NCBI GenBank assembly: GCA_014904985.1
Contig: MU128964.1
Location: 10,582 to 74,581 of the forward strand
From: Hydnum rufescens UP504
Lineage: Eukaryota > Basidiomycota > Agaricomycetes > Cantharellales > Hydnaceae
Direction: 5' to 3'
Length of the DNA stretch: 64,000 bases
Of this stretch, positions 20,801-64,000 are shown piece by piece. The notes below the pieces were generated by a model, which saw nothing but the letters and a program-made list of their open reading frames with translations, ran no database searches and was not told where the DNA came from. The position numbers and the translations under genes are program-made. Every line of letters begins with the position of its first letter. The stretch's first letter is position 1.

Positions 20801-23135
20801 CTCAAACTGCATTAGCCCCCCTTAGTGCCTCTCATGTAAGCATGACCCCAATTCCATCAGATACTGAAACTACAGGTGGATTCTTACTATGCATTTCCCA
20901 GATGGCCCCAGACCTTGTTGAACTGCAACATGATGCCATGCAATTCATCTCCACATTTGCAACTGCCATCATGACCAGTACCCCTCACATCTACCTCTCA
21001 GGTCTGACATTTGCTCCTACATCATCACTCCTATATCAGAGATGGCAGGGTCAATTTCCAGGAGTTGCAAAACTTACTCAGGGACAACTTCAGCACTGGC
21101 CAAAGATTGTGCTGATCTTAGAAGGACATCACAATAATGTAACTTGTGTTGCTTTCTCACCTGATGGCAAGCAGATTGCTTCTGGCTCCTGGGACAAGAC
21201 TATACTACTCTGGAATGCAGAGACAGGTGTGAGGATTGGCCAGCCAATTGAGGGGCATGATGATTGCATCTGGTCCATTGCTTTCTCACCTGATGGCAAG
21301 AAAATTGCTTCTGGCTCCTCAGACCAGACTATACGACTCTGGAATGTGGAGACAGGTGTGAGCCTTGGCCCACCAATGAAGGGGCATCATCATGACATCA
21401 CATCTATTGCTTTCTCCCCTGATGGCAGGAAAATTGCTTCTGGCTCCTGGGACCAAACCATACAACTCTGGAACACAGAGACAGGTGTGAGCATTGGCCA
21501 GCCAATGAAGGGTGGTCATATCTCATCCATTGCTTTCTCACCTAATGGCAAGCATATTGCTTCTGGGGGGCAGGACACCATACAACTCTGGGATGTGGAG
21601 ACAGGCATGAGCATTGGCCAGCCAATGGAGGCATATGATTACATGTCCTGCATTGCTTTTTCACCTGATGGCAAGCAGATTGCTACCAGTGGCCAGGACA
21701 TGGTCATACAACTCTGGAATCTGGAGACAGGTGCATGCATTCACCAATTGAAGGGGCATAATGGTGCCATTGTGTGCATTGCTTTCTCACCTGATGGCAA
21801 ACATATTGCATCTGGCTCCAATGATAAGAGCATACAACTCTGGAATGTGGAGTCAGGTGCAACCATTGGCCAGCCAATGATTGGGCATGATGATTCAATC
21901 TTAACCATTGCTTTCTCACCTGATGGCAAGCAGATTGTTTCTGGCTCTACAGACCACACCATACGAGTCTGGAATGTGGAGAGGGGTATGAGCATTGGCC
22001 AGCCAAAGAAGGGGGATACTTATGATGTGGGTGGGCCAGTTGCTTTCTCACCTGATGGTGAGTGGATGGCTTCTGGCTCCTCAGGTTGGGCCATGCGACT
22101 CTGGCATGTGGACACCAGCACTACCATTGGCCAGCCAATGAAGGGGCCTCATCATCAGATATCATCCATCACTTTCTCACCTGACAGCAAGCAGATTGCT
22201 TCTGACTCTCAGGATAACACCATTCATCTCTGGAATGTGGAGACAGGTGGGAGCATTGGCCAGCCAATGGAGGGACATGATATGGCCATCAAATCCCTTG
22301 TTTTCTCACCTGATGGAAAGCAGCTTGCTTCTGGCTCCCTGGGTAGCACCATACAACTCTGGAATGTGGAGACAGGTCTGAGCATTGGCCAGCCAATCAA
22401 GTGGCATAATCATGACATCTCACACATTGCTTTCTCACCTGATGGCAAGCAGATTACTTCTGGGTCATGCAATGGGAGCATACAAGTCTGGAATGTGGAA
22501 ACAGGTGTGAACATTGGCAAGCCAATGGAGGGACATAATCAGGACATTCAGTCCATTGCTTTCTTGCCTAATGGCAAGCAGATTGTTTCTGTCTCCAGGG
22601 ACACCATACAGCTCTGGAATGCAGAGACAGGTGTGCACATTGGCCAGCCAGAATGGCTTGGTAGTACCCAGTCATCCATTGCCCTCTCCCCTGATGGCAA
22701 GCAGGCTGTTTCTGGCTCTTCAAACACAGACATACAGCTCTGGAATGTGGAAACAGGGGAAAACATTGGTCAGCTGATTGGAGGAAATGATGATGGCATC
22801 TGGTCCATTCATTTCTTGCCTGATGGTAGCCAGATTGCTACCTGCTTTGGCTTCTTCACTGGTGCCACAATTTCATGGTTATCCCCTGGAAAGTCCAAAC
22901 ACAGTCTGCAGTACCCCCCCATCTATTCCCACTCCCACCATCCCCCTTTCAACTTGATGATGGGTGGATCTTGGGACCCAGTGATGAGCTTATTCTTTGG
23001 GTCCCTCCTGCCTACCGCCAAACCCTTGAGCACCCTCACCATCAGATCATTGGCAGGCCTCACAATACCCAGATTGATTTCCAGCACCTCAAGTGTGGCC
23101 AGGAATGGGCACAATGTCAGGAACTATTAGAGTAG
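17896..23135 (+). pseudogene. NACHT-WD40 (fungal NLR-like) protein, inactivated
   Basis: Proteins of this type are STAND NTPases linked to non-self recognition and cell death in fungi. First ATG at 17896 (MHKVYIS), spliced by an intron at 17918-17980 to a possible C2-like N-terminal domain. A helical region follows with LLSRLSALMKVADTVAE, then introns 18649-18701 (GC donor), 18753-18807 and 19219-19273. NACHT: Walker A GTAGAGKSS (about 19475-19505), Walker [11 protein letters not shown] (about 19770), then [10 protein letters not shown]. Fourteen WD40 repeats run from 21115 to 22890. Damage: TGA at 19345-19347 and 19615-19617 with the same frame open on both sides, frame changes near 18370, 18515 and 19015, and another near 22940. 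After the last one the conserved C-terminus ([12 protein letters not shown]) lies in a different frame and ends at 23135. Only the 19708-23130 part remains one long frame. Confidence 0.85.
21115..22890 (+). repeat. Fourteen near-identical WD40 repeats
   Basis: Each unit is about 120-130 bp and encodes the pattern [30 protein letters not shown]. Units match each other closely at the DNA level, with blocks such as GCTTTCTCACCTGATGGCAA and CTCTGGAATGTGGAGACAGG recurring many times. Differences concentrate in the first residues after each GH dipeptide and around the S/D positions. High DNA identity points to concerted evolution, as described for HET-D/HET-E-type fungal NLR repeats. Confidence 0.9.
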
Positions 23136-45325: not shown

Positions 45326-45987
45326 CATTTTCAGCAATTAGCACAACCCCACTGAGGTCGCTTTGCATGTCCCAGTTTCATTATGGATCCAAATTTATCC
45401 ACAGGCATTATCACACTGGGGAGCACACCAATCATACTATGTAATATCTAATTATCTATTGTTGAATTAGGGTCTTTCACAATAACAAAAATGAGGCAAA
45501 AATGCGCACAAAACCAATTCAGTTGGCCTTGAAAATGCTGTTTTTGGGTTCATTTGAGTTCTATCATGAAACACCCTATTATTATCACAACTTATTTAGA
45601 GTACACACTCCTGCTTGCCTAAGGGGCTCACCTGCGCACACACCACCCAACCCGGTCAGCCACAAATGTACATCTAGTTAGATACAATGAGCCTTGCATT
45701 TAAATAGTCTAACTAGATGTTTTTAGGCGGGGCCTCTGGGCCAGCTAACATGATTTGCGTGATTCAGGCAGGGGCCCCAGGGGCCCCTGGCTCTGAACTT
45801 GGAAAATGATCAGGGAAAAGTCATGGTCTTTTATGGTCTGACTTAGAGAATCTCAGACTTGCAGGACAGCGGGCCATATGGGCATATCAGGGATTCCATT
45901 TATAATTATTTATTTATTATCACTATATTATACATATACCACCTGGGGTTTCATTCTGTGGTCCCATCATTAACTTGTATTCAAGAA

Positions 45988-48168
45988 TTCAAACACCTGC
46001 TTGGGCGGGTGTGGTACTGTCCATACAAATCAAAAAGAAAAAAGCACTACTTAGCACCACACACCCACCCTAGTGGGTGTGTGGTACTGTCCATAGAAAT
46101 TAAATTTTTCTTTAAAGAAACACTATATAGTAGCACCACACACCCACTATGGTGGGTGTGTGGTACCTTCCCTTCCTTCATCAGGAGTTCGGCTGGTTTT
46201 TGAAGGGGGGGGACGTTGTGGGCGGTATTTGATAACCTAGAATAAATTTTAAAAAAAATAGGTCCTTGGGAGGGGGGGTTTGCCTGGCTCATTGTTAGCC
46301 ATTTGGACAGGCATGGCTGGGTGATTCACCATTGTGCAGGGTCATTTGGGGGTCATGGCTGTCTGTTGTCATTGTTTCAGGAGCTTCAAATTTGATCCTA
46401 GAATGGAATGATAACATACATTAGTAAAAAAATTCGAAGTGACACCAAAGGGGCAGCTTGCGCTGCTCCTTTTGCATCACTGTAGATGTAGAAAGTTTAA
46501 AAAAAAATACCTTGCAGCACCACACACCGGCATTGGTGGGTGTGTGGTACTCGTTTTTGCCTGGGGTCATGTACCTTCGACTGCCGGTTTTCCGTACAGT
46601 TCTCAGGTGGGTGGGGGGGTTTTCAGGCACGTACTCATTGGGGGGAAGGAAGATCTAGAATACAAAATTTAGATCAGTAAAAGTTAAAGCGATGCAAAAA
46701 GAGCAGCCTTCACTGCTCTTTTTGCGCCATTGGGGGTGCATTACATTACATACCTTGTATAGAACCACACACCTGCTACTGCGGGTGTGTGGTTCATCTC
46801 TTCATTTGGCGTGTCGTCATTCACGGGGATGTTGTCATTCTGGGGGGGCTTGCTTCGTGGGTCTTCACTTGTGGTGATACCTAGAATAAAAAATCATGAG
46901 TTTAAAAATTAACAGCAATGCAAAAAGAGCAGCTTTCACTGCTCTTTTTGTGTCGTCGGGGGTACATTACATACCGAGTATAGAACCACACACCCACAGT
47001 AGTGGGTGTGTGGTTCTCTTTGTGTGGTCTGTCGTTGTTTGCAGGGGTGTTGTCATTCTGGGGGGCTTGCTTCGTGGGTCTTCACTTGTAGTGATACCTA
47101 GAATAAAATCATTAGTTTAAAAATCAACAGCGATGCAAAAAGAGCAGCTTTTGCTGCTCTTTTTGCATCATTGGGGGTACATTACATACCAAGTATAGAA
47201 CCACACACCCACAGTAGTGGGTGTGTGGTTCTCTTCATGTGGTCTGTCATTGTTTGCAGGGGTGTTGTTGTTCTGGGGGGCTTGCTCATGGGTCTTCATT
47301 TCTGGTGATAGCTAGAATTAATATTAGTTAAAAAAATTAAAAGTGACGCAAAAAGAGCAGCTTTCACTGCTCTTTTTGCACCGTTGGGGGTGCATTACAT
47401 GCCTTGTATAGAACCACACACCCACAGTAGTGGGTGTGTGGCTCGGTTCTTCATGTGGGGCGTCGCCGTTCATGGGTCTCCTTTGGGGGTGGGTTATCAT
47501 TGTAGGGGGCTTGCTTTATGGGTCCTCATTTCTGGCAATACCTAGAATGAAAGATTATTAGTTAAAAAATTTAAAGCAACACAAAAAGAGCAGCTTTCGC
47601 TGCTCTTTTTGCGCTGTTGGGTACATGAGAATTACATACCTTAGATAGAACCAGACACCCGCCAGGTTGGGTGTCTGGTTCGCATCGGTTTTTCGTTCCG
47701 TTTTGGTGGTGTGTTCGTCAGGTCTTCATTTGGCATGGCTTCAATTGGCTCGTGTGGATGTTGGTTCATATCATGACCTAGAATATTAAAACATACGTTA
47801 GTGAGAAACTTGAAGCAGCGCAAAAAGAGCAGCTTTCACTGCTCTTTTTGCGCTACTGTATTTATTGGGAAAAGCAACTTACCTTAAATATTACCACACA
47901 CCTGCCACAGTGGGTGTGTGGTTTCGGGGGCCACTCATTGGGTGGTCTGTGGTTTATTTTTGTTTGGTTTTTGCTGTCTGGGCCCTCGTAATGTCGTGGG
48001 TTCTTGTCTTGGGCCTTGGACCATGATCTGAAATAATAAAAGTGTGTTAGTATATAGATTCAAAGCAGTGCAAAAAGAGTAGCTTCGCTACTCTTTTTGC
48101 ACCGTTGTACTTACTAGAATGGAAACTCACCTTGTGACCACACACCCACAGCAGCGGGTGTGTGGTCG
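45988..48168 (-). repeat. Tandem exon-intron-like hairpin modules, left arm of alpha
   Basis: Read on the minus strand, each unit of 213-249 bp has an exon-like part of about 120 nt ending in hairpin B (ACCACACACCC...GGGTGTGTGGT), a splice donor (GTATGT or GTAAGT) about 10 nt after it, hairpin A (GCAAAAAGAGCAGC...GCTGCTCTTTTTGC), a branch-like CTAAY and a TAG acceptor. Example: intron 47098-47189, exon 46975-47097. A hairpins at 46446, 46694, 46920, 47135, 47348, 47582, 47820 and 48070; B hairpins at about 46055, 46134, 46517, 46763, 46984, 47200, 47412, 47650, 47892 and 48137. Reading frames are not conserved between units. Confidence 0.85.
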
Positions 48169-50495
48169 TGGGGTTGTGTCATCATGTTGTTGCCTTGTGC
48201 TGGCATAGTTGTGAAATTCAATGCCGGCAATTGCTGATACTCAAGAAGCGCCCAAGTGCTGGTGCTACAGGCACAGTACACATCAATAGAAAAGCATGTA
48301 GATATATAATAAATACTATATAATAAATATTTGTCCAAAAAAAAAAGGGAAAATGACAATGATAATGGGTCAGAGCCCAATAAGGCATGATATGGCTAAT
48401 TGCAAGTGGATTGGGCCACTTCTATGCATCAGAATTGCCCCAAATTTAAATATATTTATGGCAATTCTGATGCATAGAAGTGGCCCAATCCACTTGCAAT
48501 TAGCCATATCATGCCTTATTGGGCTCTGACCCATTATCATTGTCTTTTTTTTTTGGACAAATATTTATTATATAGTATTTATTATATATCTACATGCTTG
48601 CTATTGATGTGTACTGTGCCTGTAGCACCAGCACTTGGACGCTTCTTGAGTATCGGCAATTGCCAGTGTTGAGTCTGCATTGCTCTTCCATCTCCGCAAC
48701 CACAACAAACCATCTGGAAAGGCAACCATGCGACCACACACCCGCTGTGGAAGATAAAAACATCCAGTATCAGAAAATGCAAATATCTATTGATCCCAGC
48801 CATTGGAATGATCATGTGACCTATTACAAAATCAATTACGGCTACATGCAGAAATCGAATTCGTTCTATAACTCCGTCAGTTTTGATCGGAGAGGTACTC
48901 CCATATAACTCTCGGAAAGCCACGATTCATACCTTTCGAATGGTACCAAACACAAGTCAAACGGACCAGAAATGCACTCTCCAGACCAATATTACTGTCA
49001 AAATTCAGGATTTTCAGTAAAAAACGAATTTCTCCATCAGTTCGCATCCAATCCTCTCAGAACAACCACGCCTGGAAAGATATAGAAAATCCTCATCCAA
49101 CGGTACTGAGCACGCGAAGAACAGATCAAAACTGAACTCTACAGAACAATATTACTATCAGAATCAACACCCATCAGTAAAAAACGAATTTCTCTGTCAG
49201 TTTACACCAGATCTGCTCGGAACCACCGCGCCCAGAAAGCTGTTAAAAATCCGCATCGAATGATACCAAGAACGTCTATTACGGATGGAAACTGTTGTTT
49301 CTGCATCAAATCCCATCCCATGCACTTGTCCCCATTATCAACCAGCAACAAAAACATCTTAACCACTGGACTACAAACAAATTAGTCTCTAAGAACTCGG
49401 AAATATCCTTTGATTTCATCTCCCATTGCCACAAATAACTTCTAGAACCTCACAGATAAGAAAGATAACACTCCCTTGACTACCCTTTTGTTCTGTTTAT
49501 GAATGACTCACCCTCCTTACAACCACTTTATGAAAGATAACACCTTCTTAGCAACCCTTTTGTTCTGTTCATGAATGACTCACCTATCTTGCAACCACTT
49601 TATGAATGACTCACCTATCATGCAACCACTTTATGAATGACTCACCCTTCTTGACAACCCTATTGTTCTCACATATGACTCACCTAGGAGTGAGTCATAT
49701 TCTTTAAACACAGCCACCTTCAGAAAGGTATAAAAGCTGGTAGATTTTCCTGTATCCCCCCATCATCTTCTCACTACTGGAATATACTACTGTCTACAAA
49801 TCTGCTTGCATCTTAAGAGAGTACTGATCTAAAGCCATCTGGAGCTAAGTCATATACAAGGTTGTTAAGACTAAGTCACTGGAAGCCCTCTACGCGAAAT
49901 ACTGAGCCAAGGATAGTTGCAGAACCTAAGGTTAGAGTTGCTGGACATCCAAGGAAAGGTGAGTAAAAACAAAGTTAAGTCAGAAGAAGAAAGAAACACA
50001 TTGACATACTAAATCAAGCTTAAACTAGTCTAGAGTCCTCTTTAGAATCCGCATTTTGACCAGGAGGACACAAATAGGTACCCACAAATAGCAGTAAACA
50101 GTTCAATACAACATGTATAAGCCTTTCACAAGCATCCCATGATATATCATTGACTATAGCTAGTCCATACCACAATCTTATCCTCCACTGAATACCATAC
50201 CTAACTTGTTAGAGAGTGATCAACCATCAGAGCGAACCAGCCCATTGAATAAAAACAGAAATACAGTCTCCCATCTACACACTGGCTGAACCAGAGTTTG
50301 ATTTGACAGTCATTGGAGCTCCCAATCCTTCTTCTATACCGCCGCTGCGGGTGTGTGGTCACAAGGTGAGTTTTTTTATTAGTAGATACAATGGCACAAA
50401 AAGAGCAGCAAAAGCTGCTCTTTTTGTGCTGCTTTCGAATTTCTTACTAACATGCTTTCACAACTGTCTGTACTGTGAATAGATCAACCATGGTA
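48030..50495. repeat. Central palindrome of alpha, about 410-bp arms
   Basis: The left arm 48030-48439 is the reverse complement of 48460-48745 plus 50339-50495, with a 20-base loop at 48440-48459. The right arm is interrupted by the insertion at 48746-50338. The innermost 90 bp (around CCACTTCTATGCATCAGAAT) are almost perfect. The flanking module (A hairpin 50394-50429, branch TACTAAC at about 50447, acceptor GAATAG) is in plus orientation, mirroring the left side. Confidence 0.9.
48746..50338 (+). mobile_element. Solo-LTR-like insertion, copy 2, 1593 bp
   Basis: It matches 6426-8072 with the same ends (TGTGGAAG...CTTCTATA) and the same flanking CCGC (48742-48745 and 50339-50342). It lies exactly within hairpin B of the right arm of alpha. 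Removing it restores ACCACACACCCGC...GCGGGTGTGTGGT. It includes the three AAAAACGAATTTCTC modules and a TATA box near 49728. Confidence 0.8.
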
Positions 50496-50559
50496 TGATA
50501 CCAGTGTTAATTAATATATCAACACAGTATCTTACCGCTTGGCTAGATACCAGCAGGAT

Positions 50560-50700
50560 AGCCAGAGCAACAACCCCCATGAAAAATAATACAGATTATA
50601 ATCTGCCACTTGTAAGATTTGAACCCCCAAGCTTTGAAAGCATGAGGGACTCCAGACATCACAGACGGCTAGGTCAACTCATTGTGCTTGTTTTACACTA
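50560..50700 (-). other. tRNA-like (SINE-type) fragment
   Basis: On the minus strand an A-box-like TAGCCAAGCGG (near 50540) and a B-box-like GGGTTCAAATC (near 50620) occur, with a second A-box-like CTAGCCGTC between them. No acceptor stem could be folded. A pol III-derived SINE remnant is possible. Confidence 0.25.
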
Positions 50701-50853
50701 TGCAAAGTCCTCTATATACCCTGAGGAGTCACATGATCACAAGAAGCTCACGTCTGTAATTATCGATCTCTCAGTTCATGCCATTCAATGTTAACCAGAT
50801 AGTCATGCAATCCCAACAGTTATAACAAACACAGAGGGAGTACGGGAGCAACA

Positions 50854-53074
50854 CTATCCATCCTCTAGACCTTCCTCCCCTGCACTATCAAGACCTGGGA
50901 TGTCTGGTGTACTGGGGCTCAACCACATACTGGCAAATTCGATCTGCCGGTTTCTGTAGATAGCAGCTTGTTTTGCTGCATACGCCTGAACACCATCCCA
51001 TAGATCCAGAAAGCGTGTATCAGTATGGGATGTGCCTCTTGAATCCCACCAAGCTGCTTGATATTCAAAAAATGCGAGAACTCAGCACATTTCTTCTTGG
51101 AGAAGCTGGACTTCTTCTTCCCACCGTTGCATTCAAGCACGTGATCTAGCCCATTCAACATGCAGCACTATCGGATCGTGAGCTGCCTCCACAACTTGAA
51201 GTACAGTGCATTGCATACCTTCGTGCATCTCTGGCATATCCAACTTGTCCGTACTGACAGTGATCCAGATCCAAGATAAAGTCTGATGACCCTCGCCAGG
51301 GCCATCTCTGTGCCTTCATTCAATGTCATCCTCAGGTGTAGTGAGTGACTGTATATCTTGCTGCATCAAGGGCTTCAGAACTAACTCCCACTCACCACGA
51401 CCCACAATGGTCTGATAAGCTGCTCATGCCACCCAGTACCTTGCTGCAATTCGTTCTGTCTGACCTTCAGCCTTGTTGAGGAGTGTATGTGCACGTGTAT
51501 TTGCATGCTGACCATGTACTTGGTCTTTCTTATACTTGATCAGATGACTACAAACTGTGAGTGATTGCCAAAGTTCGACAATCATGTCAGTCGCTTGCAC
51601 ATACTGCAACTGGCGTTCAACATCGGCAATCCGACCATTGGATGATCTAACCAAAGAAGGGAGTTGTGAAGGAAGGAGGAGTGACTGTGTCTCAGGATGA
51701 GACTCCAACTGATCATTTGGTGGGTGTGCCACTAGGTAACAGGTTGCCTCAGGCATGTACGCTGCCTGGATCACCCAAAAGGCCATTATCCGCTTCTCTA
51801 TATGAAGACGGCATTCTTGAATATCAGCTTGCTGAAGGGTTGTGCCCAAATTAGCATGTACATTTGCAAGTTGGGCAAGGCAGTGTCTACAACATTCAGA
51901 TATAGTCATTGACAAAAAGACCTTCGACTCACTGATTTTCTTCCAGCTCGAGCCCCATGATTAAGAAAGCAGTGGCACTTACAGCATGCAATTCGGGGGA
52001 GCCTTGACTGAGGGAATCCCTCTCTTGACGTATGAGGTTGAGCCGGATTTGTGCCTGAGTCTGGGCTATTGAACACCATAAGCTTTAAGCTCATGACAGG
52101 TGTAAACAAACATACATGAGGCTGGTATAATGTATGGGTCAGGATTGCTATTGTTGAGCTCCCAAGCCAATACCCCTGCCTCCCATTCTTGGGTCACAGC
52201 TCCTGGGAATCCAGAACTGAACTCTGTGAATTGTTCAGTGTGGATAGTGACAGCAGTAATGGCAGCTGCTAGCTTGGTTCGAAGTGAGACACCTTTTAAA
52301 AGTAGCATTTATATAATGGCATATTTGAATGGAGTAGCAACAACTCACCCAATCCAACTACCTTGCGGTAATTCCAATCGCCAAGGAGATTGTTGATGAT
52401 GTCGTGACGGGATCCTTCACCCATTTCTTTCGTGCTGGAAGCAGCAGGATTGAGATTCGCCCAATCACGCTCTATGCTTTCACTGTCTGTTCGCCCAGCA
52501 CCAGGGCAGAGATTTAGTGAGTATTTTGTCTGGCACAGTTGTTTGTGGGTGGGGAGGTGGAATTTTGGCACAACACCAGTAAGGTTGATTTTTGGATCAA
52601 GCTGGAGAGGGCAAGGCAGTGAAATATGGCGCGCTTGCTGCTTCTTTGACCATTGACAGAATATGTCGTAGGAAAGGAGGATGCTGCGAAGGCCGCACGA
52701 TTGGAGGCTCAAGAAAATAATATAATCCATGTTACTATACCTGCCATGCGCATGTTAATTACCATTGCCTGAAATGAAAGGACTCAGTGAATATGGCTTA
52801 CCTCTCACCTTTCTGGAGATCCCCGAGACCTAACGCTCGAATGCATCCTTGATGAGCGCAAACAGATGTGCCAACTCCGGTAACACGAAGTCCTGAAGAC
52901 TTCCTTGTGTTGGCAAGATCTAAAGCAGCGAGACCACTGCATGTAGAGATCTAATTGACCAACAAATTAGTCCCTGAGTGCATGATATGAGAGAACAAGG
53001 TACATCTTTTTCAGACACATAATTGAGAAGGAACTTCTTGTATTCTTCATTTTTGATGAAGTACGCCCAACCAG
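50854..53074 (-). pseudogene. KDZ-family transposase (CxC2-like), 5' truncated
   Basis: Minus-strand landmarks in order: GWAYFIKNEEYKKFLLNYVS (53070-53010); VCAHQGCIRALGLGDLQKG; SNMDYIIF; LLSYDIFCQWSKKQ; VPKFHLPTHKQLCQTKYSLN; GRTDSESIERDWANLNPAAS with SSTKEMGEGSRHDIINNLLG; AAITAVTIHTEQFTEF; LIMGLELEENQ, joined by an intron at 51887-51932 to CLAQLANVHANLG and IEKRIMAFWVIQAAYMP; and a C-terminus RWEEEVQLLQEEM, ending at 50854. In-frame TGA codons occur at about 51423, 51133 and 51082 with frame continuing. The N-terminal half is missing: the gene stops at the edge of the palindromic element that begins at 53075. Confidence 0.85.
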
Positions 53075-56000
53075 CACCTTGGTCAGTCATCTAAGCCTAC
53101 CCAATTAGGCACCACTTCCGGGGCAGATAATGGACCTAACATGGTCCCATCACTATTTCGGCCAAATTCAGTCATTTAGGTCTTTCCCTTTGAAATCTCT
53201 CACTCAAGCTTCTGGCTGAAAATTGGCCGAACATTGCCCAAAATGATGACTTAGAGCTCAAGCCCTTGGAACACTTTAATTAAAGGCCATTATAGATGGC
53301 TTCAAGTCTGCCTTTAAGAATCAAACTTAAACTTAGGAATTTTTAGATATAATCAAACAGTTTTTAGAATATAACAGTACTATATACACAACATATCATA
53401 ACCATATGGTACTGTTCAACTGCATCTTCAGAAAGAGTTGAGGAGAAGAAGGGAGGAGGAGCAAAACACTTGAGTGACACCTGAAGTCCTCAAACCCATC
53501 CAATCCCCCTGAAGATAATATTGGAAGAGATCCCAAACTGAGGGATTTCTATCAAGCCCAGTAGCCCCCCATAGTACACTGCTTCCATCAAACAGTGTGT
53601 GAATGACAAGGCAGATGAATGCCTTAAAGCCCCAACACTAGAAATGCTCCTGCGCATTGAGTTGTTATCAGATCGTCCTGAATGTACTGGCATTGGAATG
53701 CCACAATAAAGGTCTTTCTTCCAAGCCCATATATGAGGAGAGGCATGTAGATTACATGACAAAGTGAGGGTAGGAATGAAATATCAGCTCCAAAGTGCGT
53801 TAGGGATCTCCTGAAGGTGCAATTCGCCACGGATCGGCTTGACAATGGTACCGTTGGAAAGCCCTAAATCACAGCTTTCGATCAAGCACAATATCGTATG
53901 TTTTGGTGGGGATTTGGCGACAAAGAAGCAGGAGGAGTACAGAGGTGATGAGGAGATCACCACTCATCTCACTCCTGAGCATGTAGTTCACCTCCAATTG
54001 TCTCACAAATGGGACCAATGGAAAGCTGTGATTCACGTCTCCATGTCAAGCCTATTATGAAGACGATTGGAAATGAACTCATGGAGATATGGGGGAAAAG
54101 GTGGGAAACAGGGCCATAGGAAAGATGAAGCCACTGTGCCCCCAATACCCCACCAAAATGCGCGATATAGGGCTTGTTTGAAATTGTTGATTCAGGGCTT
54201 TCCACTGGGAATACGAACGCAATGAATACAACAATTATGCTACTCCCTGAAACCACACAGAGGTGATAATAGGGACATGGCGATGATGAAGGACCCTGGT
54301 ATGCCACCCTCCAGAAACCTCACAGAGGTGGTTTCTGGGTGTTGCAGTGGTCCATCCCCCCCTCTTGTGCTACTCCCTGAAGCCACACAGAGGTGGAAAC
54401 AACAGGGGAATGGCGACAGCTAAGGACTCTAGTATGCCACCCTCCAGAAACCTCACAGAGGTGGTTTCTGGGTGTTGCAGTGGTCCATCCCCCCCCCTCT
54501 CTCCCCTAAAAATAAAGTTCTAATGCACCTATCACACCAAAACCATGCAGAGGTGGCTTATGGCAGTGATAGGAATTGACACCCAGAGGGGTGTCCCCAG
54601 ACCTCCTGTTGATCAGGATGGAATGTGCTCAAGTCACTGTCCACTCAGAGGTGGACAGTGACCTTGTGCAATGTTTCCTAAGGCAGCAGCTATGGGGATT
54701 GATGCCAGATCAGTAAAAATCAAAAGATAGTGCAAAAGAGCTGCACTAGGCAGCTCTTTTGGCACCAATGTATATACTAGGTAGCATATACTCACCTTAC
54801 TTCCACAGCCCAGGTGTTCTAGGGTGTGGTGTTGAGTTGGGGAATAAGGGTGGTGGTGAGTTGCAAGGAAAGGGCACAGCCACTGTGCCTTTCCTCACAA
54901 CTCACCACCACCCTTATTCCCCAACTCAACACCACACCCTAGAACACCTGGGCTGTGGAAGTAAGGTGAGTATATGCTACCTAGTATATACATTGGTGCC
55001 AAAAGAGCTGCCTAGTGCAGCTCTTTTGCACTATCTTTTGATTTTTACTGATCTGGCATCAATCCCCATAGCTGCTGCCTTAGGAAACATTGCACAAGGT
55101 CACTGTCCACCTCTGAGTGGACAGTGACTTGAGCACATTCCATCCTGATCAACAGGAGGTCTGGGGACACCCCTCTGGGTGTCAATTCCTATCACTGCCA
55201 TAAGCCACCTCTGCATGGTTTTGGTGTGATAGGTGCATTAGAACTTTATTTTTAGGGGAGAGAGGGGGGGGGATGGACCACTGCAACACCCAGAAACCAC
55301 CTCTGTGAGGTTTCTGGAGGGTGGCATACTAGAGTCCTTAGCTGTCGCCATTCCCCTGTTGTTTCCACCTCTGTGTGGCTTCAGGGAGTAGCACAAGAGG
55401 GGGGGATGGACCACTGCAACACCCAGAAACCACCTCTGTGAGGTTTCTGGAGGGTGGCATACCAGGGTCCTTCATCGTTGCCATGTCCCTATTATCACCT
55501 CTGTGTGGTTTCAGGGAGTAGCACAATTGTTGTATTTGTTGTGTTCATATGCCCAGTGGAAAGCCCTGAATCAATGCTTTCAAACAAGCCCTATATCACG
55601 CATTTTGGTGGGGTATTGGGGGCACAGTGGCTTCGTCTTTCCTATGGCCCTGTTTCCCACCTTTTCCCCATATCTCCATGAGTTCGTTTCCAATCGTCTT
55701 CATAATAGGCTTGACATGGAGCCGTAAATCACAGCTTTCCATTGGTCCCATTTGTGAGACAATTGGAGGTGAACTACATGCTCAGGAGTGAGATGAGTGG
55801 TGATCTCCTCATCACCTCTGTACTCCTCCTGCTTCTTTGTCGCCAAATCCCCACCAAAACATACGATATTGTGCTTGATAGAAAGCTGTGATTTAGGGAT
55901 TTCCAATGGTACCATTGTCAAGCTGATCCATGGTGAATTGCACCTTCAGGAGCTCCCAACGCACTTTGGAGCTGATATTTCATTCCTACCCTCACTTTGT

Positions 56001-56684
56001 CATGTAATCTACATGCCTCTCCTCATATATAGGCTTGGAAGAAAGGCCTTTATCGTGGCATTCCAATTCCAGTACATTCAGGACGATCTGATAACAACTC
56101 AATGCGCAGGAGCATTTCTAGTGTTGGGGCTTTAAGGCATTCATCTGCCTTGTCATTCACACACTGTTTGATGGAAGCAGTGTACTATGGGGGGCTACTG
56201 GGCTTGATAGAAATCCCTCAGTTTGGGATCTCTTCCAATATTATCTTCAGGGGGATTGGATGGGTTTGAGGACTTCAGGTGTCACTCAAGTGTTTTGCTC
56301 CTCCTCCCTTCTTCTCCTCAACTCTTTCTGAAGATGCAGTTGAACAGTACCATATGGTTATGATATGTTGTGTATATAGTACTGTTATATTCTAAAAACT
56401 GTTTGATTATATCTAAAAATTCCTAAGTTTAAGTTTGATTCTTAAAGGCAGACTTGAAGCCATCTATAATGGCCTTTAATTAAAGTGTTCCAAGGGCTTG
56501 AGCTCTAAGTCATCATTTTGGGCAATGTTCGGCCAATTTTCAGCCAGAAGCTTGAGTGAGAGATTTCAAAGGGAAAGACCTAAATGACTGAATTTGGCCG
56601 AAATAGTGATGGGACCATGTTAGGTCCATTATCTGCCCCGGAAGTGGTGCCTAATTGGGTAGGCTTAGATGACTGACCAAGGTG
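53075..56684. mobile_element. Near-perfect 3.6-kb palindromic element delta
   Basis: Arms 53075-54879 and 54883-56684 (1805 and 1802 bp) are reverse complements with few differences, and the loop is three bases. Termini are CACCTTGGTCAGTCATCTAAG and its inverse. Each arm reads outward: a GTGAGT donor at about 54964, hairpin GCCAAAAGAGCTGC...GCAGCTCTTTTGC, a branch-like TTTACTGAT and acceptor CCATAG at about 55070, then about six small hairpins around CCACCTCTGNG (55100-55515) and diverged repeats with GGAAAGC...TTTGGTGGGG. No credible protein is encoded. It interrupts the KDZ gene at 50.9-53.1 kb. No target duplication was found. Confidence 0.9.
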
Positions 56685-56913
56685 GTTGAGAGTGTGAGTT
56701 TTTTTCATCCCAAAGGGAATCCTATGCTTATTATATGTACAGTCCAAAAGACTTCCAGCAAAGGGCCATCCAATTGCTATTGGGGATTGGTTGCAGTGCA
56801 CCTGAAGCCTCACATGGTTCCCTGACCTCTCTAAACCTTCCCTTTTGTGAGCCCATGCAAATTCTTGGTGGACATGGTGGATAGTCTGCCAGCCAAGCTG
56901 GAGGGTCACAAAC

Positions 56914-57111
56914 TTGGACAGAAATGGATTCCACCCCTCAAATGGTAAGGGAGACTGGCCCTCACTGCGTATTCCTGGGAAAAATGGTTTGGTTTTGCAT
57001 ATCATGGCTTTGGGATGGTGGGGAAATGCAGCCCTCAACAATGTGGCAGAAATGGAAAAGTGGACAGATGCTGTGAAGGAATTTACATGGGCGCTCCAAA
57101 AAATGCACTGA
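56914..57111 (+). CDS. Fragment of a hypothetical agaricomycete protein
   Basis: 65 codons with a protein-like stretch KNGLVLHIMALGWWGNAALN followed by WTDAVKEFTWALQKM. The WWG and W..AV.. pattern recurs in uncharacterised agaricomycete proteins, which I note from memory only. It is truncated on the 5' side by delta and on the 3' side by element beta. Confidence 0.3.
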   Translation: MDRNGFHPSNGKGDWPSLRIPGKNGLVLHIMALGWWGNAALNNVAEMEKWTDAVKEFTWALQKMH

Positions 57112-57737
57112 TTGCGTAAAATATAGCCACCAACTCAGTCAGCCACAAATGTAGGTCTAGTTAGATATTATGAGCCTTGCATTTATATAGTCTAACTAGA
57201 GGTTTTGATGCTGGGGCCCCTGGGGCTGGCTAACCTGATTTCCGTGGTTCAGGCAGGGCCCCCAGGGGCCCCTGCCTCCCACCTTAGACTGCAGCAAGGG
57301 AGCTGGCAAATAAATCATGGGGGTGGGCTCCAGCAGACCTGGGAATGTCCCTGAATGGGTGAGCGGGCTATACAGGCTTATCGGCAATTGGGATTGTTTA
57401 TTTATTACTGTTTGTTCTCATTATTACACATTATTATTATTATTATTATTATTATTATACTATTATACAGATTGATCCCCCTGCCCCCCCGGATTATAAC
57501 ACATAATTATTCATTTATTATTTTTATACTATTATACAGCTTATCCCCCCCCTCCCTCTTCTGGTATTCAATGGGGGTTGTAAGTTTATATTTGGTGGGG
57601 TCGTGGGTTTTTATTCGGCGGGGTCGCAGGTTTTTGGTCAGCGGATTTGCGGATGGTGGTTCGTGTTCATGCAGGTTTTGGGACCAGGGGGAGGGGGATT
57701 GGGTGGGGGTAGGTGCAGGCCATGGGGTCAGAAGAAC

Positions 57738-59105
57738 ACCTAGAGTAATAAACAGTATGTTAGTGAAGAAAAGAAAAGCCACGCAAAAGGAGCAGCCTGT
57801 GCTGCTCCTTTTGCGCGATTGTACTTCTAGCATGAAATACTTACCTTAAAAAATTACCACACCCACCAAAGCGGGTGTGGCTTGTGTGGGTTCTCGGCGT
57901 TGCATCGTTTCATGGCTTCATTGGTTTTCGTCATGCGCGGGGGTCTTGTTCGGCATGAGGTCATTCGCGGGTCTTCGTTCACGGGATTCGAGTCTGGGGG
58001 GAGGGGGATTGGTGTGGGCTATGGGGACCTTGAATAATGAACCCTACATTAGCAAAAAAAAGAAAAGGCATGCAAAAGGAGCAGCCTGTGCTGCTCCTTT
58101 TGCGCGGTTGTACTTCTAAGTTGAAATACTTACCTTAAAAATCACCACACCCGCCAAAGCGGGTGTGGCTCATGTGGGTTCTTGGCACCAGGTCGTTTTG
58201 TGTCTTCATTGGGTTTGGTTTTCGTTATTTGTGGGGGTCTCGTTCGGTGCGGGGTCTTTCGTGGGCCGTGCTCGGCGGGCTGTTGCTTTGCGGAGGGGGG
58301 TTCGTTTGGCCATTCGTTCTCATTCAGCAGCTCTTGGTTTCGTTGGTAGAGGTTCAGGCGATAACCTAGAAAAATCAAGTATTAGTTAGACATTAAAACC
58401 AGCGCAAAAAGAGCAGCACTCGCTGCTCTTTTTGCGCCGTTGGGGGTACAAATAATACTTACCTTATATAGAACCACACACCTGCTATGGCAGGTGTGTG
58501 GTTCATTGGGCGCGTTCTCGGTTGGGGTCCACCAGGGTTTTCGGCGTCGTTTCATGTTGTTGTTTGGCGGGCGTCTGTTCTATTCGTTCTTGTTGGGTGC
58601 ATCTTCATTTTGCCGGTTCTGGTTCAGACAATCACCTAAGATAATAGAAACACATTAGTTAAAAATTAAAACAAGAACCAACGCAAAAAGAGCAGCATTT
58701 GCTGCTCTTTTTGCATTGTTGGGGTATATAGCATTACTTACTTTATATGGAGCCGCACACCCGCTTTGAGGGGGGTGCAGTTCACATGGCTACTCGATCC
58801 TCGTGTTCTCATCGTTTATCACGTTTTCGGTTGGCGTGTTTTCGGCTGGTGGTTTCGTTTGGCGTATTTTCGGTTGGTGTATAGCCATTTGGGCCCTTGT
58901 CGTTTGGCCGGCTTCCGTCTGCTACCTTGGAGCAGGCCATAACCTAAAATAATAAAAGATATATTAGTAAAAGTGATTCAAAGCAGCGCAAAAAGAGCAG
59001 CTTTCGCTGCTCTTTTTGCGCCATCATATATACTAATGAAAAAAAAAAAAAAACTCACCTAAGGACCACACACCCGCAGCGGCGGGTGTGTGGTCGCGTA
59101 CCTCC
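57738..59105 (-). repeat. Tandem hairpin modules, left arm of beta
   Basis: A hairpins at 57782, 58072, 58402, 58683 and 58986; B hairpins at 57857, 58143, 58473, 58751 (decayed) and 59064. Example intron on the minus strand: 58029-58133 with GTAAGT donor and CTAAY branch. Two units have the A stem with GGAG/CTCC instead of AGAG/CTCT, and the B stem shortened equally on both sides (CCACACCC/GGGTGTGG), so pairing is kept. Confidence 0.85.
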
Positions 59106-60030
59106 CTATCTGGGTGGCTGCCTTACTTATTGGGTGGTGGCGGTTGCATAGTTGCGAGGAACTCAACACCGGCAATTGCCGGCATCCCAAAAGCGCCCAA
59201 GTGCCTGGTGCCATGAGTACCATACGAACTAGCAGCAAGTAAATAGATGTAAAATAAATAATAAATAATAACTAGTTGCTCCAAAAAAATGAAGAACACC
59301 ATGACAATCAGTCAGAGTTCAAAAGAGGCATGATATAATACATTGCAAAGTGGATTGGGCGAATTTCTATGGTTCAGAACCAGCCCAAATCTAAATATAT
59401 TGGTGGAATACATGAAGCCTATATGGGCGATTAATTATCTTGGACGTTCTCTCCATTTTTCAATTTTTCCCACCTTCATTCCCTATATTTAGGGAATTGA
59501 AGGTGGGAAAAATTGAAAATGGAGAGAACGTCCAAGATAATTAATCGCCCATATAGGCTTCATGTATTCCACCAATATATTCAGATTTGGGCCGGTTCTG
59601 AACCATAGAAATCGCCCAATCCACTTTGCAACGTATCATATCATGCCTCTTTTGAACTCTGACTGATTGTCATGGTGTTCTTCATTTTTTTGGAGCAACT
59701 AGTTATTATTTATTATTTATTTTACATCTATTTACTTGCTGCTAGTTCGTACGGTACTCATGGTGCCAGGCACGTGGGCGCTTTTGGGATGCCGGCAATT
59801 GCCGGCGTTGAGTTGCGTTCTTTCTCGCGACTACCACAACAACCACCACCCAACAAGGCAACTGCCCATTAAAGGAAACACACGACCACACACCCGCCGC
59901 TGCGGGTGTGTGGTCATTAGGTGAGTTTTTTTCATAGTAGCTACAATGGGGCAAAAAGAGCAGCGAAAGCTGCTCTTTTTGCCCTGCTTTGAATTGTTTT
60001 TACTAACACCTTTTATTACTTTAGATTGTG
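58900..60030. repeat. Central palindrome of beta, about 560-bp arms
   Basis: Centre at 59484/59491 (TTCCCT, then AGGGAA). The arms are reverse complements through GGAGAGAACGTCCAAGATAA, TCATGCCTCTTTTGAACTCTG, GGCGCTTTTGGGATGCCGGC and the B and A hairpins on each side. The core is homologous to the alpha core (shared GCGCCCAAGTGC, GTGGATTGGGC, TTCTATG), though clearly diverged. Confidence 0.9.
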
Positions 60031-61353
60031 ACCTGGTCCTAAGCACCAGACGAAAACACGCGAAACGACGAGGGCCCGACTGCCCAGGGCCCAAACGGCA
60101 ACACGCCAGCCAACAACGCACAGGAAACGCGAGTAACGCGACTGCGCCAGACGATGACGCGACGCGCCAGATGACGATGTGACGACGACAGATGACGACG
60201 CAGCTGCGCCAGACAACGACACCACAAACAGAAGACAACGCCCCCAGTGAGTGGGCCGCACGAACCACACCGCTACGGTGGGTGTGATTCTCTATATAGG
60301 GTGAGTCCCCCCTTATATATAGCCACGCAAAAAGAGCAGCAAAGCTGCTCTTTTTGTGCTGGTTGTAAATGTTTTTTAACTAACATCATCTTCTATTCTA
60401 TGTGATGAAGGTGAAACCCACCGAACGAGAACCGGGGGACACGCCAAACGACCCACCCCCCCTTCCCATGCAACACAACAAAGAGAACACAAAAACGACC
60501 AAGCCAGACGACGACACGACGATGACGGACACAATGGCCCAGGAGTGCCCACGAACCGCACCCACTACGCGGGTGTGGTTCTCTATATGAGGTGGCCCCC
60601 AGTAGNNNNNNNNNNNNNNNNNNNNNNNNNNNNNNNNNNNNNNNNNNNNNNNNNNNNNNNNNNNNNNNNNNNNNNNNNNNNNNNNNNNNNNNNNNNNNNN
60701 NNNNNNNNNNNNNNNNNNNNNNNNNNNNNNNNNNNNNNNNNNNNNNNNNNNNNNNNNNNNNNNNNNNNNNNNNNNNNNNNNNNNNNNNNNNNNNNNNNNN
60801 NNNNNNNNNNNNNNNNNNNNNNNNNNNNNNNNNNNNNNNNNNNNNNNNNNNNNNNNNNNNNNNNNNNNNNNNNNNNNNNNNNNNNNNNNNNNNNNNNNNN
60901 NNNNNNNNNNNNNNNNNNNNNNNNNNNNNNNNNNNNNNNNNNNNNNNNNNNNNNNNNNNNNNNNNNNNNNNNNNNNNNNNNNNNNNNNNNNNNNNNNNNN
61001 NNNAAGAGGATATGAGGCGGCAATAACATGGGGAATGTAAGTACCACCACCCGCGCCGCGGGTGTGTGGTACTACAAGGTAAGTTTCTTTATTAATGCGT
61101 GTCTAACTAATGTACTGCTTTTTTTTCTAGATCTTAGACTCGAATCCGCGACGAACCCCCGACCCCTCACCCGCCGAGCCAAACCTGCCAGACGAACACC
61201 CCGCGAACCCAAACCCGGCGAACGAAGATCCGGCAAGCCAAACCCCGCAACCCCAAACCGCTGAACCAAGCAAACCCCCTGGCATGAAGGTAAGGGTTTT
61301 TTCCTTTGGCTACAATTGCGCAAGAAGAGCAGCCCCGGGCTGTTCTTCTTGGG
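59885..61353 (+). repeat. Tandem hairpin modules, right arm of beta
   Basis: B hairpins at 59885, 60264, 60550 and 61043; A hairpins at 59951, 60327 and 61320. Plus-strand introns carry GTGAGT/GTAAGT donors, TACTAAC or CTAACTAAT branch sites and TAG acceptors (one reads AAG). The intron at 61079-61130 is only 52 nt and lacks hairpin A, matching its mirror at 63482-63534. The last exon-like part (61131-61289) is Pro/Asn-rich in one open frame. Confidence 0.85.
60606..61003. other. Assembly gap, 398 N
   Basis: Undetermined bases inside the beta array. At least one further module is expected here from the spacing of the units on each side. Any open frames across the gap are meaningless. Confidence 1.
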
Positions 61354-61589
61354 CATGGGTGAGCCCCACTGGGCGAGCCATGGATGTATATAATATAATA
61401 TAATAATAATAGCAATAATAAATATATTTAATATATGATGCATAATATGGCAGGGGCCCCTGGGCTGCTTTGGGGGCCCCTTGATTGTATTGCAGGGGCC
61501 CCTGGGGGCCCCGGGCTCTGATATCTAGTTAGAGTATATAAATACACCCTTGAAGCATCTAGTTAGATACGGATAATTGCCTGAAAGGC

Positions 61590-63020
61590 TGCTCACTCCG
61601 GTCAACTCCGGTCCACTCCAGATCACTCCCAGTCCTTGTCCACCCACCTTCCAGTCCAGTCCTCCACTTAGTCCTTTGCCCAAGTCCACTTTGCTTCCAG
61701 TTTGACTCCAGTCCAACCCTATCTTGGTTTCATTTCCCTTTCATTTCCCATTGCTTCCAGTTTGCCCCCTGGCCGAGTTCCTGTTCCTGTTCCTGTCCCC
61801 CTTGTAACCACCCCCAGTTTTAGCAATCACTCCCCCGTAGTAATAGTCATCATGTATAAGTAGTCCGAGAGTGAAGTCCAGAGACCCAGCTTTGGTCTCT
61901 CAGGATTTCCACTGTTACTCCGGACCACAGGTCAGCCTTCATGTATTCCATATTCATATTACATAATCTCAGGATTTCTGCTGTTACTCTGGACTACAGT
62001 TCCGAGTATTATCCAGTCGACTCCACAAGCTTAAGGACCGCCATGCTCATTTCCGCCTAGTCCCTTCCGGGCTGCTGGACCACTCCTCCAACACCCTAAC
62101 CTCCTTATCTCATTCTTGCCCGGATTCTTGCAGACTTAGCTGGACTTACACTGGACTTAGCCGGAATTATTTGTGTTTACATTTGTTTGGTGCCCTCATC
62201 ACAGCGTGGCCCTGACAAGATCCCATCCTCCCTGAGCTCAATGGTTTCCATCATGCAGAAGGCAGTCATCTGATAAAACATGGTACTGTCACATTGTGAT
62301 ACTACCTGTTTTTCAGTATCTTCAAGGCATCATCCTGACATCTGATAAAATGCTGTACCATCACATTGTGATAGTACTCATTTTTTAGTACCTTCAAGAC
62401 ATCATTGTCCTCAGTGCTTGGTGAAGTGGGCTGCTGCAGTTTGCTGTGGCACTCATTTCCTGGCTCTTGTTACCATATTTTTTCTTTGTTCTGTCTCATG
62501 TCTTGCCACCACCAAGGTAAGTTAAACTAGCACCCTATTCCCTCTCCCCTTGAGCTCAATGATTTCCCAAGTCATTGGGCTACAGAAGCCCGACATCTGA
62601 TAAAATGCCATACAATCACATTGCGATAGTACTCGTTTTTCAGTACCTTCAAAATATCATCATCCTTGGTGCTTGGTGAAGTGGGTCACTGCAGCTAGCT
62701 GTGGTACACATTTCCTGACTCTTCAAGCATGTAACTGGCTTGTAACACATCACATTGTCGCATTGTGATAGTGCTCGTTGTTCTAGTGTCCTCAAGCTTT
62801 GTCCTACTTTCTTTTGTGGAGTGAATCACTGTGGCCAGTCTGTGGTGTCCACTCCCAAATTCCTCAACTACGCATCTTTGGTTGAATGCTGCATTGTCGC
62901 ATTGTCATGGTGTCCATTTCTCCAACATCCTCAAGTCCACTCACTCCCTTGTTCAAGTGAATCACTGTGGTTTGTCTAAGTGCTCACTTGTCATCTCCCT
63001 CAAATACTGCATGCATCAGC
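61590..63020. other. Spacer between beta and gamma with LTR fragment and tandem repeats
   Basis: From 61590 to 62216 the sequence is C/T-rich with two CTCAGGATTTC blocks and ends CCCTGACA, like the solo LTR at 27632-28476. From 62266 to about 62970 there are four to five imperfect direct repeats with CATCTGATAAAATGC, ATCACATTGTGATAGTACTC and GGTGCTTGGTGAAGTGGG. No gene is seen. Confidence 0.55.
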
Positions 63021-63023
63021 CTG

Positions 63024-64000
63024 GTCAGCCAATTATCCGTATCTAACTAGATGCTTCAAGGGTTGTATTTATATACTCTAACTAGATATCAGAGCCCGGG
63101 GCCCCAGGGGCCCCTGCAATACAATCAAGGGGCCCCCAAAGCAGCCCAGGGGCCCCTGCCATATTATGCATCATATATTAATATATTATTATTATTGCTA
63201 TTATTATTATTATTATATTATATACATCCATAGGCTCGCCAGTGGGGCTCACCCATGCCCAAGAAGAACAGCCCGGGGCTGCTCTTCTTGCGCAATTGTA
63301 GCCAAAGGAAAAAACCCTTACCTTCATGCCAGGGGGTTTGGCTTGGTTCAGCGGGTTTGGGGTTGCGGGGTTTGGCTTGCCGGATCTTCGTTCGCTGGGT
63401 TTGGGTTCGCGGGGTGTTCGTCTGGCAGGTTTGGCTTGGCAGGTGAGGGGTCAGGGGTTCGCGCGGATTCGAGTCTAAGATCTAGAAAAAAAAGCAGTAC
63501 ATTAGTTAGACACGCATTAATAAAAGAAACTTACCTTGTAGTACCACACACCCGCGGCAGTGGGGTGTGTGGTACTTTACATTCCCCGTGTATTGCCGGC
63601 CGGGTTTCGATATGTGGGGTCGCGGGGGTTCTTGCGTTGGTATTTGCTCGCGTGAAAGGTGAAGACCTAATAGAAAAAAAAGTCGGTCAGTTAAGAAATA
63701 AGGGCAGCACAAAAAGAGCAGCTTTCGCTGCTCTTTTTGGCAGGCCGCATCTACTGGGGGGGGGGGACTCACCTTACATAGGACCACACACCCGCCGCAG
63801 CGGGTGTGTGGTTCCTGGGGCTCATCTGGCACGTTGTCGTCTGAGCCCTCGTTGTTTCGCGCGCTTTCGTCATATTGTAGATCAGATCTTGAGCTAGAAT
63901 AATAAAAGACGGGTTAGTCAAACAAGTCCAAAGCAGCGCAAAAAGAGCAGCCTTTGCTGCTCTTTTTGCGCGGCCGTATCTACTGGGGGGGACTCACCTC
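63024..64000. mobile_element. Palindromic hairpin-array element gamma, left part
   Basis: Starts GGTCAGCCAATTATCCGTATCT. Its first 560 bp are the inverse of the right end of beta, so 61028-61589 and 63029-63590 form a large inverted repeat around the spacer. Minus-oriented modules: A hairpins at 63257, 63709 and 63936; B hairpins at 63541 and 63781. An intron without hairpin A lies at 63482-63534 (53 nt). CG dinucleotides are frequent, suggesting a younger copy than alpha. It continues beyond the window. Confidence 0.75.

What the first reader, a model, noticed from the sequence alone, without database searches (positions are those of the whole stretch)
45648..64000. A family of palindromic elements built from exon-intron-like hairpin modules
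Alpha (45648-50495), beta (57137-61584) and gamma (63024 onward) share one plan: a GGTCAGCC end, CTAGTTAG motifs around a TATA-like core, GGGCCCC blocks, then tandem modules alternating hairpin B and hairpin A, and a central palindrome from which modules read outward on both arms. No transposase or other protein is visible. I know of no named element class with this plan. Working idea: non-autonomous foldback elements whose repeat unit is a spliceable exon-intron pair, possibly giving long hairpin RNA. Novelty itself could not be tested here.
Basis: partly seen in the sequence, partly recalled or inferred. Interest (0 to 1): 0.9.

Follow-up and report, generated by a model that had tools for sequence, protein, structure and literature searches.

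The report
Palindromic transposons made of spliceable modules
A mushroom-forming fungus carries what look like hundreds of copies of a mobile DNA element with no visible protein gene, whose two mirror-image halves are strings of small exon-intron units reading outward from the centre, which raises the question of why such an element should keep so many working-looking splice sites.

Summary
The window most likely comes from Hydnum rufescens UP504 (Cantharellales). The elements form a dispersed family with common ends, not a local satellite: 419 genome copies of the 15-bp end pattern, 716 of a central half-motif, and exact 8-bp target duplications at 6 of 11 end pairs examined. The end is shared with KDZ-transposase elements: 3 of 3 exact matches to a KDZ-side 29-bp terminus lie 1578-1586 bp behind a KDZ domain. 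So these are non-autonomous, probably KDZ-mobilised, foldback-type DNA transposons.

The interior is unusual. Each arm is a row of modules with donor, hairpin A, branch point and acceptor in tight geometry. In 9 elements, 84 of 84 distinct introns read outward from a conserved central palindrome. Exons end in hairpin B about 10 nt before the donor, are T-poor and show no coding signal. Four of nine deposited gene models over these modules use one predicted junction. Hairpin A mismatches show no RNA-strand bias.

Corrections: alpha is truncated on the right; beta starts at 57131, gamma at 63017; a 3.6-kb near-perfect palindrome (53075-56684) was missed. No RNA data were available; splicing is inferred.

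The parts
45648..50495 (.). alpha: right-truncated element (left end, left arm, centre, one right-arm intron, about 1.6 kb of other sequence inside a hairpin B)
45648..45662 (+). alpha left terminal repeat CAACCCGGTCAGCCA
45674..45716 (.). alpha subterminal CTAGTTAG...TTTAAATA..CTAACTAG motif
   Evidence: 209 genome hits, 0 control
46398..48114 (-). alpha left arm: eight predicted introns (46398-46527, 46655-46753, 46881-46974, 47098-47189, 47312-47421, 47542-47639, 47778-47882, 48028-48114), read outward (leftward)
46655..46753 (-). predicted intron whose exon junction recurs in 4 of 9 deposited gene models
48218..48672 (.). alpha central palindrome (arms of 99, 56 and 75 nt, 96%, 100% and 92% complementary)
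50366..50482 (+). alpha right arm: single predicted intron, outward
53075..56684 (.). delta: 3.6-kb near-perfect palindrome (arm pieces 95-99% complementary), ends CACCTTGGTCAGTCA, hairpin intron reading outward
54966..55071 (+). delta right-arm predicted intron with an A-like hairpin; the left arm holds its mirror copy (by eye)
57131..61591 (.). beta: both ends present, right end damaged, no target duplication seen, assembly gap 60606-61003
57740..59058 (-). beta left arm: five predicted introns (57740-57844, 58019-58133, 58366-58462, 58636-58741, 58944-59058), read outward (leftward)
59160..59814 (.). beta central palindrome (arms of 206 and 123 nt, 96% and 91% complementary)
59921..60410 (+). 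beta right arm: introns 59921-60024 and 60301-60410 (only, L012 3983-4092), outward
63009..63016 (+). gamma left copy of the 8-bp target duplication GCATGCAT
63017..64000 (+). gamma: left end and first modules; the element continues to window 67479 (L011 699-5161)

Best explanation
These are non-autonomous DNA transposons with KDZ-type (Zisupton-like, 8-bp duplication) ends, 4.4-5.7 kb in the six copies with exact duplications, moved in trans by a KDZ transposase that recognises the short CA...GTCAGCCA ends. Shown: common ends, 8-bp duplications, the shared KDZ terminus, outward splice signals with tight geometry, no coding signal. Inferred: the conserved central palindrome holds two divergent promoters; each drives a non-coding pre-RNA outward through its arm, where the ordinary spliceosome removes each intron (hairpin A folding out of the intron, hairpin B left at the exon 3' end), and the RNA ends in the AT-rich stretch before the GGGCCCC blocks. 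Most likely reason for keeping the introns (inferred, weak): efficient splicing of the element's own transcript keeps its chromatin transcribed and accessible to transposase in a genome where copies decay at CpG. Modules multiply by tandem duplication; the central arms were made alike in each subfamily's founder.
For: Ends and duplications: 11 end pairs tested, 6 exact 8-bp, 1 with 7 of 8 bases. KDZ link: the 29-bp terminus from C31 has 3 exact genome matches, all facing and 1578-1586 bp behind a KDZ hit; a fourth match, with 2 mismatches (C101), has no listed KDZ neighbour. Direction: 84 of 84 distinct introns in 9 elements outward, the centre put at the best split. Opposite strand as control: of 182 hairpin A sites, 117 had donor plus branch point/acceptor on one strand only, 2 on both, 63 on neither. 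Geometry, quartiles: donor to A 26-36, A to branch-point motif 19-21, branch-point motif to intron end 22-25, hairpin B to donor 8-11 nt (130 of 172 with a recognisable B arm). T content 12.6% in exons, 35.9% in introns. No Pfam match in 10 of 41 long frames of six elements. Four of nine gene models carry junction 9-mers absent from the unspliced loci held. Three of four copy pairs are 95-97% alike, with 68, 47 and 62% of their differences being transitions at CpG. Centre arms are 0.86-0.95 alike within an element; medians to all other elements' arms are 0.70-0.73.
Against: No RNA data. The gene models may be ab initio, share one junction type, and five of nine lack it. The KDZ elements' left ends were not seen; only the outer 15-16 bp are shared with the module elements. 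Four of 11 end pairs have no duplication, nor has beta. Hairpin A shows no RNA-strand bias (28 G-U, 33 A-C), so the stems may be maintained as DNA palindromes. At 63 of 182 hairpin A sites no full set of signals was found. Promoter and RNA-end roles rest on position and composition only. Introns were called with motif filters, so the base frequencies are partly built in.
Confidence: 0.6

Rival explanations
1. Passive passengers: a host or transposon exon-intron segment was captured once and multiplied by unequal exchange; the splice signals persist only by descent and the RNA does nothing. (Compatible with the KDZ chassis, so the odds given here are not exclusive.)
For: Copies are young, so signals could persist without selection; module number varies freely between elements; 63 of 182 hairpin A sites lack a full set of signals.
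Against: Donor, branch point and acceptor keep tight spacing to the hairpins across modules whose called exons run from 81 to 423 nt (the longest hold an uncalled intron), and the delta family shares the outward hairpin intron.
Confidence: 0.3
2. DNA-level foldback function: the hairpins and the central palindrome act as DNA (cruciforms, replication or repair substrates), and splice-like signals are secondary.
For: Stems 97% and 96% Watson-Crick with few intermediates (2444 of 2511 pairs in A, 1354 of 1409 in B; both sets were picked for good stems), no G-U excess in A; near-perfect 3.6-kb delta palindrome.
Against: Strict polarity of splice signals (84 of 84) and T-poor exons against T-rich introns are not explained by DNA symmetry; B has a marginal G-U excess (34 v 20, p 0.04).
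Confidence: 0.15
3. Long hairpin RNA source: transcription through the centre gives fold-back RNA that feeds small-RNA silencing.
For: Centre arms are long inverted repeats.
Against: All 84 distinct introns in 9 elements point outward; RNA through the centre would carry one arm antisense and without splice signals. No small-RNA data.
Confidence: 0.08
4. Ordinary coding gene family (the deposited 'hypothetical proteins' are real).
For: Nine H. rufescens gene models match the modules.
Against: 68 exon lengths fall 20/26/22 over residues 0/1/2 modulo 3; open frames in 54 of 109 exons against 46% of shuffles; the models differ in reading frame after the same junction (by eye); orthologous exons of L009, L011 and L012 differ by 1 and 5 nt.
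Confidence: 0.03

Closest known systems
KDZ (Kyakuja-Dileera-Zisupton) DNA transposons, Zisupton-like
   Same: 8-bp target duplications, as stated for Zisupton (PMC12730594: abstract, passages and section 3.2 seen); CA...TG termini, stated there for Kyakuja; outer 15-16 bp shared with KDZ-bearing elements of this genome. Zisuptons are called abundant in Basidiomycota (PMC7550596: passages and one section seen).
   Different: No transposase found; interior of outward spliceable modules with no counterpart in the parts of those papers that I saw. Kyakuja of Laccaria makes 7-bp duplications and has no terminal inverted repeats (PMC12730594).
Foldback-type elements with tandem-repeat arms (Tetris of Drosophila virilis; Galileo, FB)
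   Same: No coding capacity, long inverted arms holding a variable number of about 220-bp tandem units, 8-9 bp duplications, ends shared with another element (Tetris, PMC4079207: abstract and one section seen). Galileo and FB: search listing and recall only.
   Different: Tetris units are not described as exon-intron units in what I saw; here most units carry spliceosomal signals of one polarity.
Introners and stwintrons (mobile introns)
   Same: Many similar spliceosomal introns, some with internal symmetry (stwintron papers: search listing only; introners: recalled).
   Different: Here the introns are internal parts of a larger element with its own ends, not insertions that become introns of host genes.

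Membership tests
KDZ/Zisupton-type DNA transposon, non-autonomous | 8-bp target site duplication | tested here: met
   exact in 6 of 11 end pairs, 7 of 8 bases in one, absent in four (two of these share one left end in L015); beta, read apart, has none
KDZ/Zisupton-type DNA transposon, non-autonomous | terminal repeat shared with a KDZ-encoding element | tested here: met
   3 of 3 exact matches to the 29-bp KDZ-side terminus lie 1578-1586 bp behind a KDZ domain; one further match with 2 mismatches does not; only the outer 15-16 bp are common with the module elements, and KDZ left ends were not seen
KDZ/Zisupton-type DNA transposon, non-autonomous | mobilisation by KDZ transposase | not testable with these tools
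   needs an excision assay
KDZ/Zisupton-type DNA transposon, autonomous | KDZ transposase inside the element | tested here: not met
   0 Pfam matches in 10 of 41 frames of 100 or more codons in six elements, longest 271 codons; none in one frame each of L010 and L016
hAT transposon | hAT transposase element with the same ends | tested here: inconclusive
   hAT matches lie next to two insertions (C252, C31) as neighbouring or interrupted DNA; no hAT element with these ends was seen, but only 20 hAT loci were searched for ends
Foldback-type element | long inverted arms built of tandem units, no coding capacity | tested here: met
   the two arms of an element match well at the centre, less so in their module series
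MITE | short element (under about 600 bp, recalled) | tested here: not met
   the six with exact duplications are 4432-5687 bp; one 395-bp end-to-end copy (L018) has no duplication
Introner | element itself is excised as an intron of a host gene | tested here: inconclusive
   splice sites are internal and the ends are not at splice sites; solo hairpin A sites could not be fetched
Local satellite | confined to one locus, no common boundaries | tested here: not met
Known structured RNA (Rfam) | match above gathering score | tested here: not met
   (window 45400-64000): 58 matches at E up to 1, none at its gathering score

The most novel reading that the evidence does not exclude
A transposon class in which spliceosomal splicing of a non-coding RNA is a working part of the element: divergent central promoters drive outward arrays of exon-intron modules, and the introns are kept because splicing protects the element from silencing or promotes its mobility.
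Probability: 0.3. Interest if true: 0.9.

Novelty: new variant of a known kind. Interest (0 to 1): 0.72.

Why it matters
If these arrays are spliced, a mobile element without a visible protein gene keeps up to eight called introns per arm. That would make the idea that introns help transposons escape silencing directly testable in one genome with many natural copies. It would also show a route by which arrays of introns arise and are carried around a genome. Practically, the family appears to add false 'hypothetical protein' genes to this genome's annotation.

Tried and rejected
Viral contigs (0 matches) and bacterial genomes (30 stretches with one hairpin site each, resembling intrinsic terminators, not examined further) gave no relatives of the family. 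Rfam gave only matches below gathering scores, mostly to microRNA-type hairpins. L017, taken first as a possible autonomous copy, is a left end followed by Ty3/Gypsy-type retroelement frames. hAT as autonomous partner was considered because of 8-bp duplications and a hAT match next to an end in L056; the hAT sequence lies outside the element. One search stopped on an index error after printing the composition; it was rerun. Delta shows no target duplication by eye. Not found in print: seen as listings with abstract starts (three papers looked into further); subscription papers are not held.

Relatives in other fungi could not be searched at DNA level. The last protein search found nine module gene models, the query included, all of H. 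rufescens; this does not show absence elsewhere.

Rows dropped before a count: L012 adds no intron to the 84 because its introns duplicate the window's, and L011 only two; L009 and alpha were left out of the centre-arm identities because their right halves are interrupted; 3 hairpins A and 66 hairpin B windows without a good stem were dropped; exons outside 40-330 or 60-330 nt were left out.
Full report
What it is. The window is C56:10582-74581 of a 63.2-Mb, 539-contig assembly. An open KDZ frame of the same genome (L033) matches BS47DRAFT_1255798 of Hydnum rufescens UP504 at 100% identity over 85% of its length, and another hit of that strain lies on a contig of 539377 bases, the length of C6 here. 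I take the host to be H. rufescens UP504, Cantharellales.

Family and ends. The first 1001 bases of alpha match five other places over their full length at 89-91% and many more in part (only 40 of 900 candidates were scored). Genome counts with reversed-pattern controls: subterminal motif 209 v 0, hairpin A 1645 forward and 1623 reverse v 0, 15-bp end 419 v 2, central half-motif 716 v 0. In the listed rows many half-motifs pair as minus/plus, often about 620 bp apart, some closer or wider. If two half-motifs make one centre, there are some 350 elements or remnants; this is an estimate. Twenty stretches were read. Left ends read CAACTCAGTCAGCCACAAATG or variants, right ends CAGCCTGGTCAGCCAATTATC or variants. 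Of 11 end pairs, 6 (L009, L011 = gamma, L013, L022, L023, L027; 4432-5687 bp) have exact 8-bp duplications, L010 has 7 of 8 bases, and L015 (two pairs with one left end), L018 and L028 have none. Beta was missed by that pattern because its right end is damaged; read directly, it has no duplication.

The KDZ link. The genome is rich in KDZ domains (584 first-look candidates, 150 scored) and has hAT domains (90 matches). Comparing the lists by eye, 4 of the 30 listed KDZ hits on C1-C48 (one on C12, two on C19, one on C31) have a facing end 1.5-1.9 kb downstream (only the first 100 of 419 ends are listed). The terminus at C31 (L089) gives a 29-mer with 3 exact genome matches, at C19, C31 and C530, all 1578-1586 bp behind a KDZ domain; a fourth with 2 mismatches (C101) has no listed KDZ neighbour. 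The module elements share the outer 15-16 bp with these, not the subterminal CTAGTTAG motif. Left ends of KDZ elements were not seen. Delta, the palindrome at 53075-56684, ends in CACCTTGGTCAGTCA, a variant of the same end; its arm had 37 candidate stretches in the genome.

The modules. Scanning hairpin A sites in L009-L028 on both strands for donor plus branch point and acceptor gave both signals on one strand only at 117 of 182 sites, on both strands at 2, on neither at 63 (sites were grouped by rounded position, and ten were seen on one strand only). A second, laxer scan called 172 distinct introns from 223 hairpin hits, duplicates of the window's own loci included. In nine elements all 84 distinct introns point outward when the centre is put at the best split; every element gave one clean change of direction. 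Median intron 105 nt, exon 148 nt. Spacing is tight: donor to hairpin A 29, A to branch-point motif 20, that motif to intron end 24, hairpin B to donor 10 nt, medians. On the outward strand exons hold 12.6% T and introns 35.9%. The base frequencies are partly built in by the motif filters; the agreement of direction with arm and the composition contrast are not.

Not coding. Of 68 exon lengths 20, 26 and 22 leave 0, 1 and 2 modulo 3. Open frames occur in 54 of 109 exons, against 46% in shuffles. Whole exons fold better than mononucleotide shuffles (mean z -1.8), exon bodies without the last 50 nt slightly worse (mean z +0.58, 108 exons), so the structure sits in hairpin B. Six elements hold 41 stop-to-stop frames of 100 or more codons, the longest 271; 10 of them were scanned, with 0 Pfam matches.

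An outside check on splicing. A translation of joined alpha exons found two deposited H. rufescens proteins; a search with one of them found nine, itself included, all H. rufescens. Four of the nine (P0056, P0057, P0059, P0062) contain 9-residue words that cross the junction of the intron at 46655-46753 and occur in none of the unspliced loci held; five do not. I do not know whether these models rest on RNA evidence, and my first query contained that junction, so this shows that gene callers chose the same splice sites, not that RNA is spliced.

Stems. Hairpin A: 167 distinct, 3 dropped, 2444 of 2511 pairs Watson-Crick, 28 G-U against 33 A-C. Hairpin B: 171 windows, 66 dropped, 1354 of 1409, 34 against 20 (one-sided p 0.04). 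Both sets were picked for good stems, which lifts the percentages but treats G-U and A-C alike. Several paired states with few mismatches show that stems stay matched, but for A there is no sign that RNA rather than DNA is what is kept. Template-switch correction of palindromes would also do this (recalled).

Centre and history. Half-arms from centre to first donor align over the subfamilies sampled, with an AT-rich block, then CACTTGGGCGC...GGCAATTGCCGGCGTTGA before the first exon (output cut in the middle). In nine elements left and right halves are 0.86-0.95 alike, medians to all other elements' arms are 0.70-0.73, and the matching arm of a same-subfamily element is up to 0.99: the arms were made alike in each subfamily's founder rather than anew in each copy. 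Four pairs of copies are 96, 97, 95 and 86% identical; transitions at CpG make up 68, 47, 62 and 26% of their differences. Three pairs are thus young and CpG-decayed.

Mechanism. I propose divergent non-coding transcription from the centre, splicing along each arm, RNA ends before the GGGCCCC blocks, and movement in trans by a KDZ transposase. All four steps are inferred from sequence. Why the introns are kept is open; the best guess is that efficient splicing favours open chromatin or escape from silencing. The passive-passenger rival is not excluded, and the odds given are not exclusive because rivals differ in function, not in chassis.

Novelty. The chassis is known. Searches of the paper library listed no element with spliceable foldback modules; this covers open-licence papers only, seen as titles and abstract starts, with three papers looked into further (PMC12730594, PMC7550596, PMC4079207).

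Odds and interest were not changed when this report was checked against the calls.

Noticed in passing
window 53075-56684: 3.6-kb near-perfect palindrome (delta) with a KDZ-like end variant and an outward hairpin intron; a second family with the same theme, more copies in the genome.
   Followed up: partly
window 127-141: A further end of the delta type (CACCTTGGTCAGTCA on the minus strand) at the window's left edge; another such element may lie mostly outside the window.
   Followed up: no
window about 48750-50340: About 1.6 kb of other sequence inside a hairpin B of alpha, with a TATAAAAG and repeated ATGAATGACTCACC units; similar units at 7162-7269 (by eye). Nature unknown.
   Followed up: no
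window 8965-9138: hAT dimerisation-domain match (C56:19546-19719).
   Followed up: no
window 21149-22839: Tandem array with periods 129 and 390; its unit looks like WD40 coding sequence by eye.
   Followed up: no
P0056-P0064 (H. rufescens UP504 proteins): Nine deposited hypothetical proteins match the module arms; some read different frames after the same junction, so they are probably annotation artefacts.
   Followed up: partly
L017 550-9601: Module-element left end followed by chromodomain, RNase H, reverse transcriptase, gag and protease matches in two orientations, so probably nested retroelements.
   Followed up: partly
L018 494-888: 395-bp copy with both ends and no hairpin modules, like a miniature derivative; no target duplication.
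   Followed up: no
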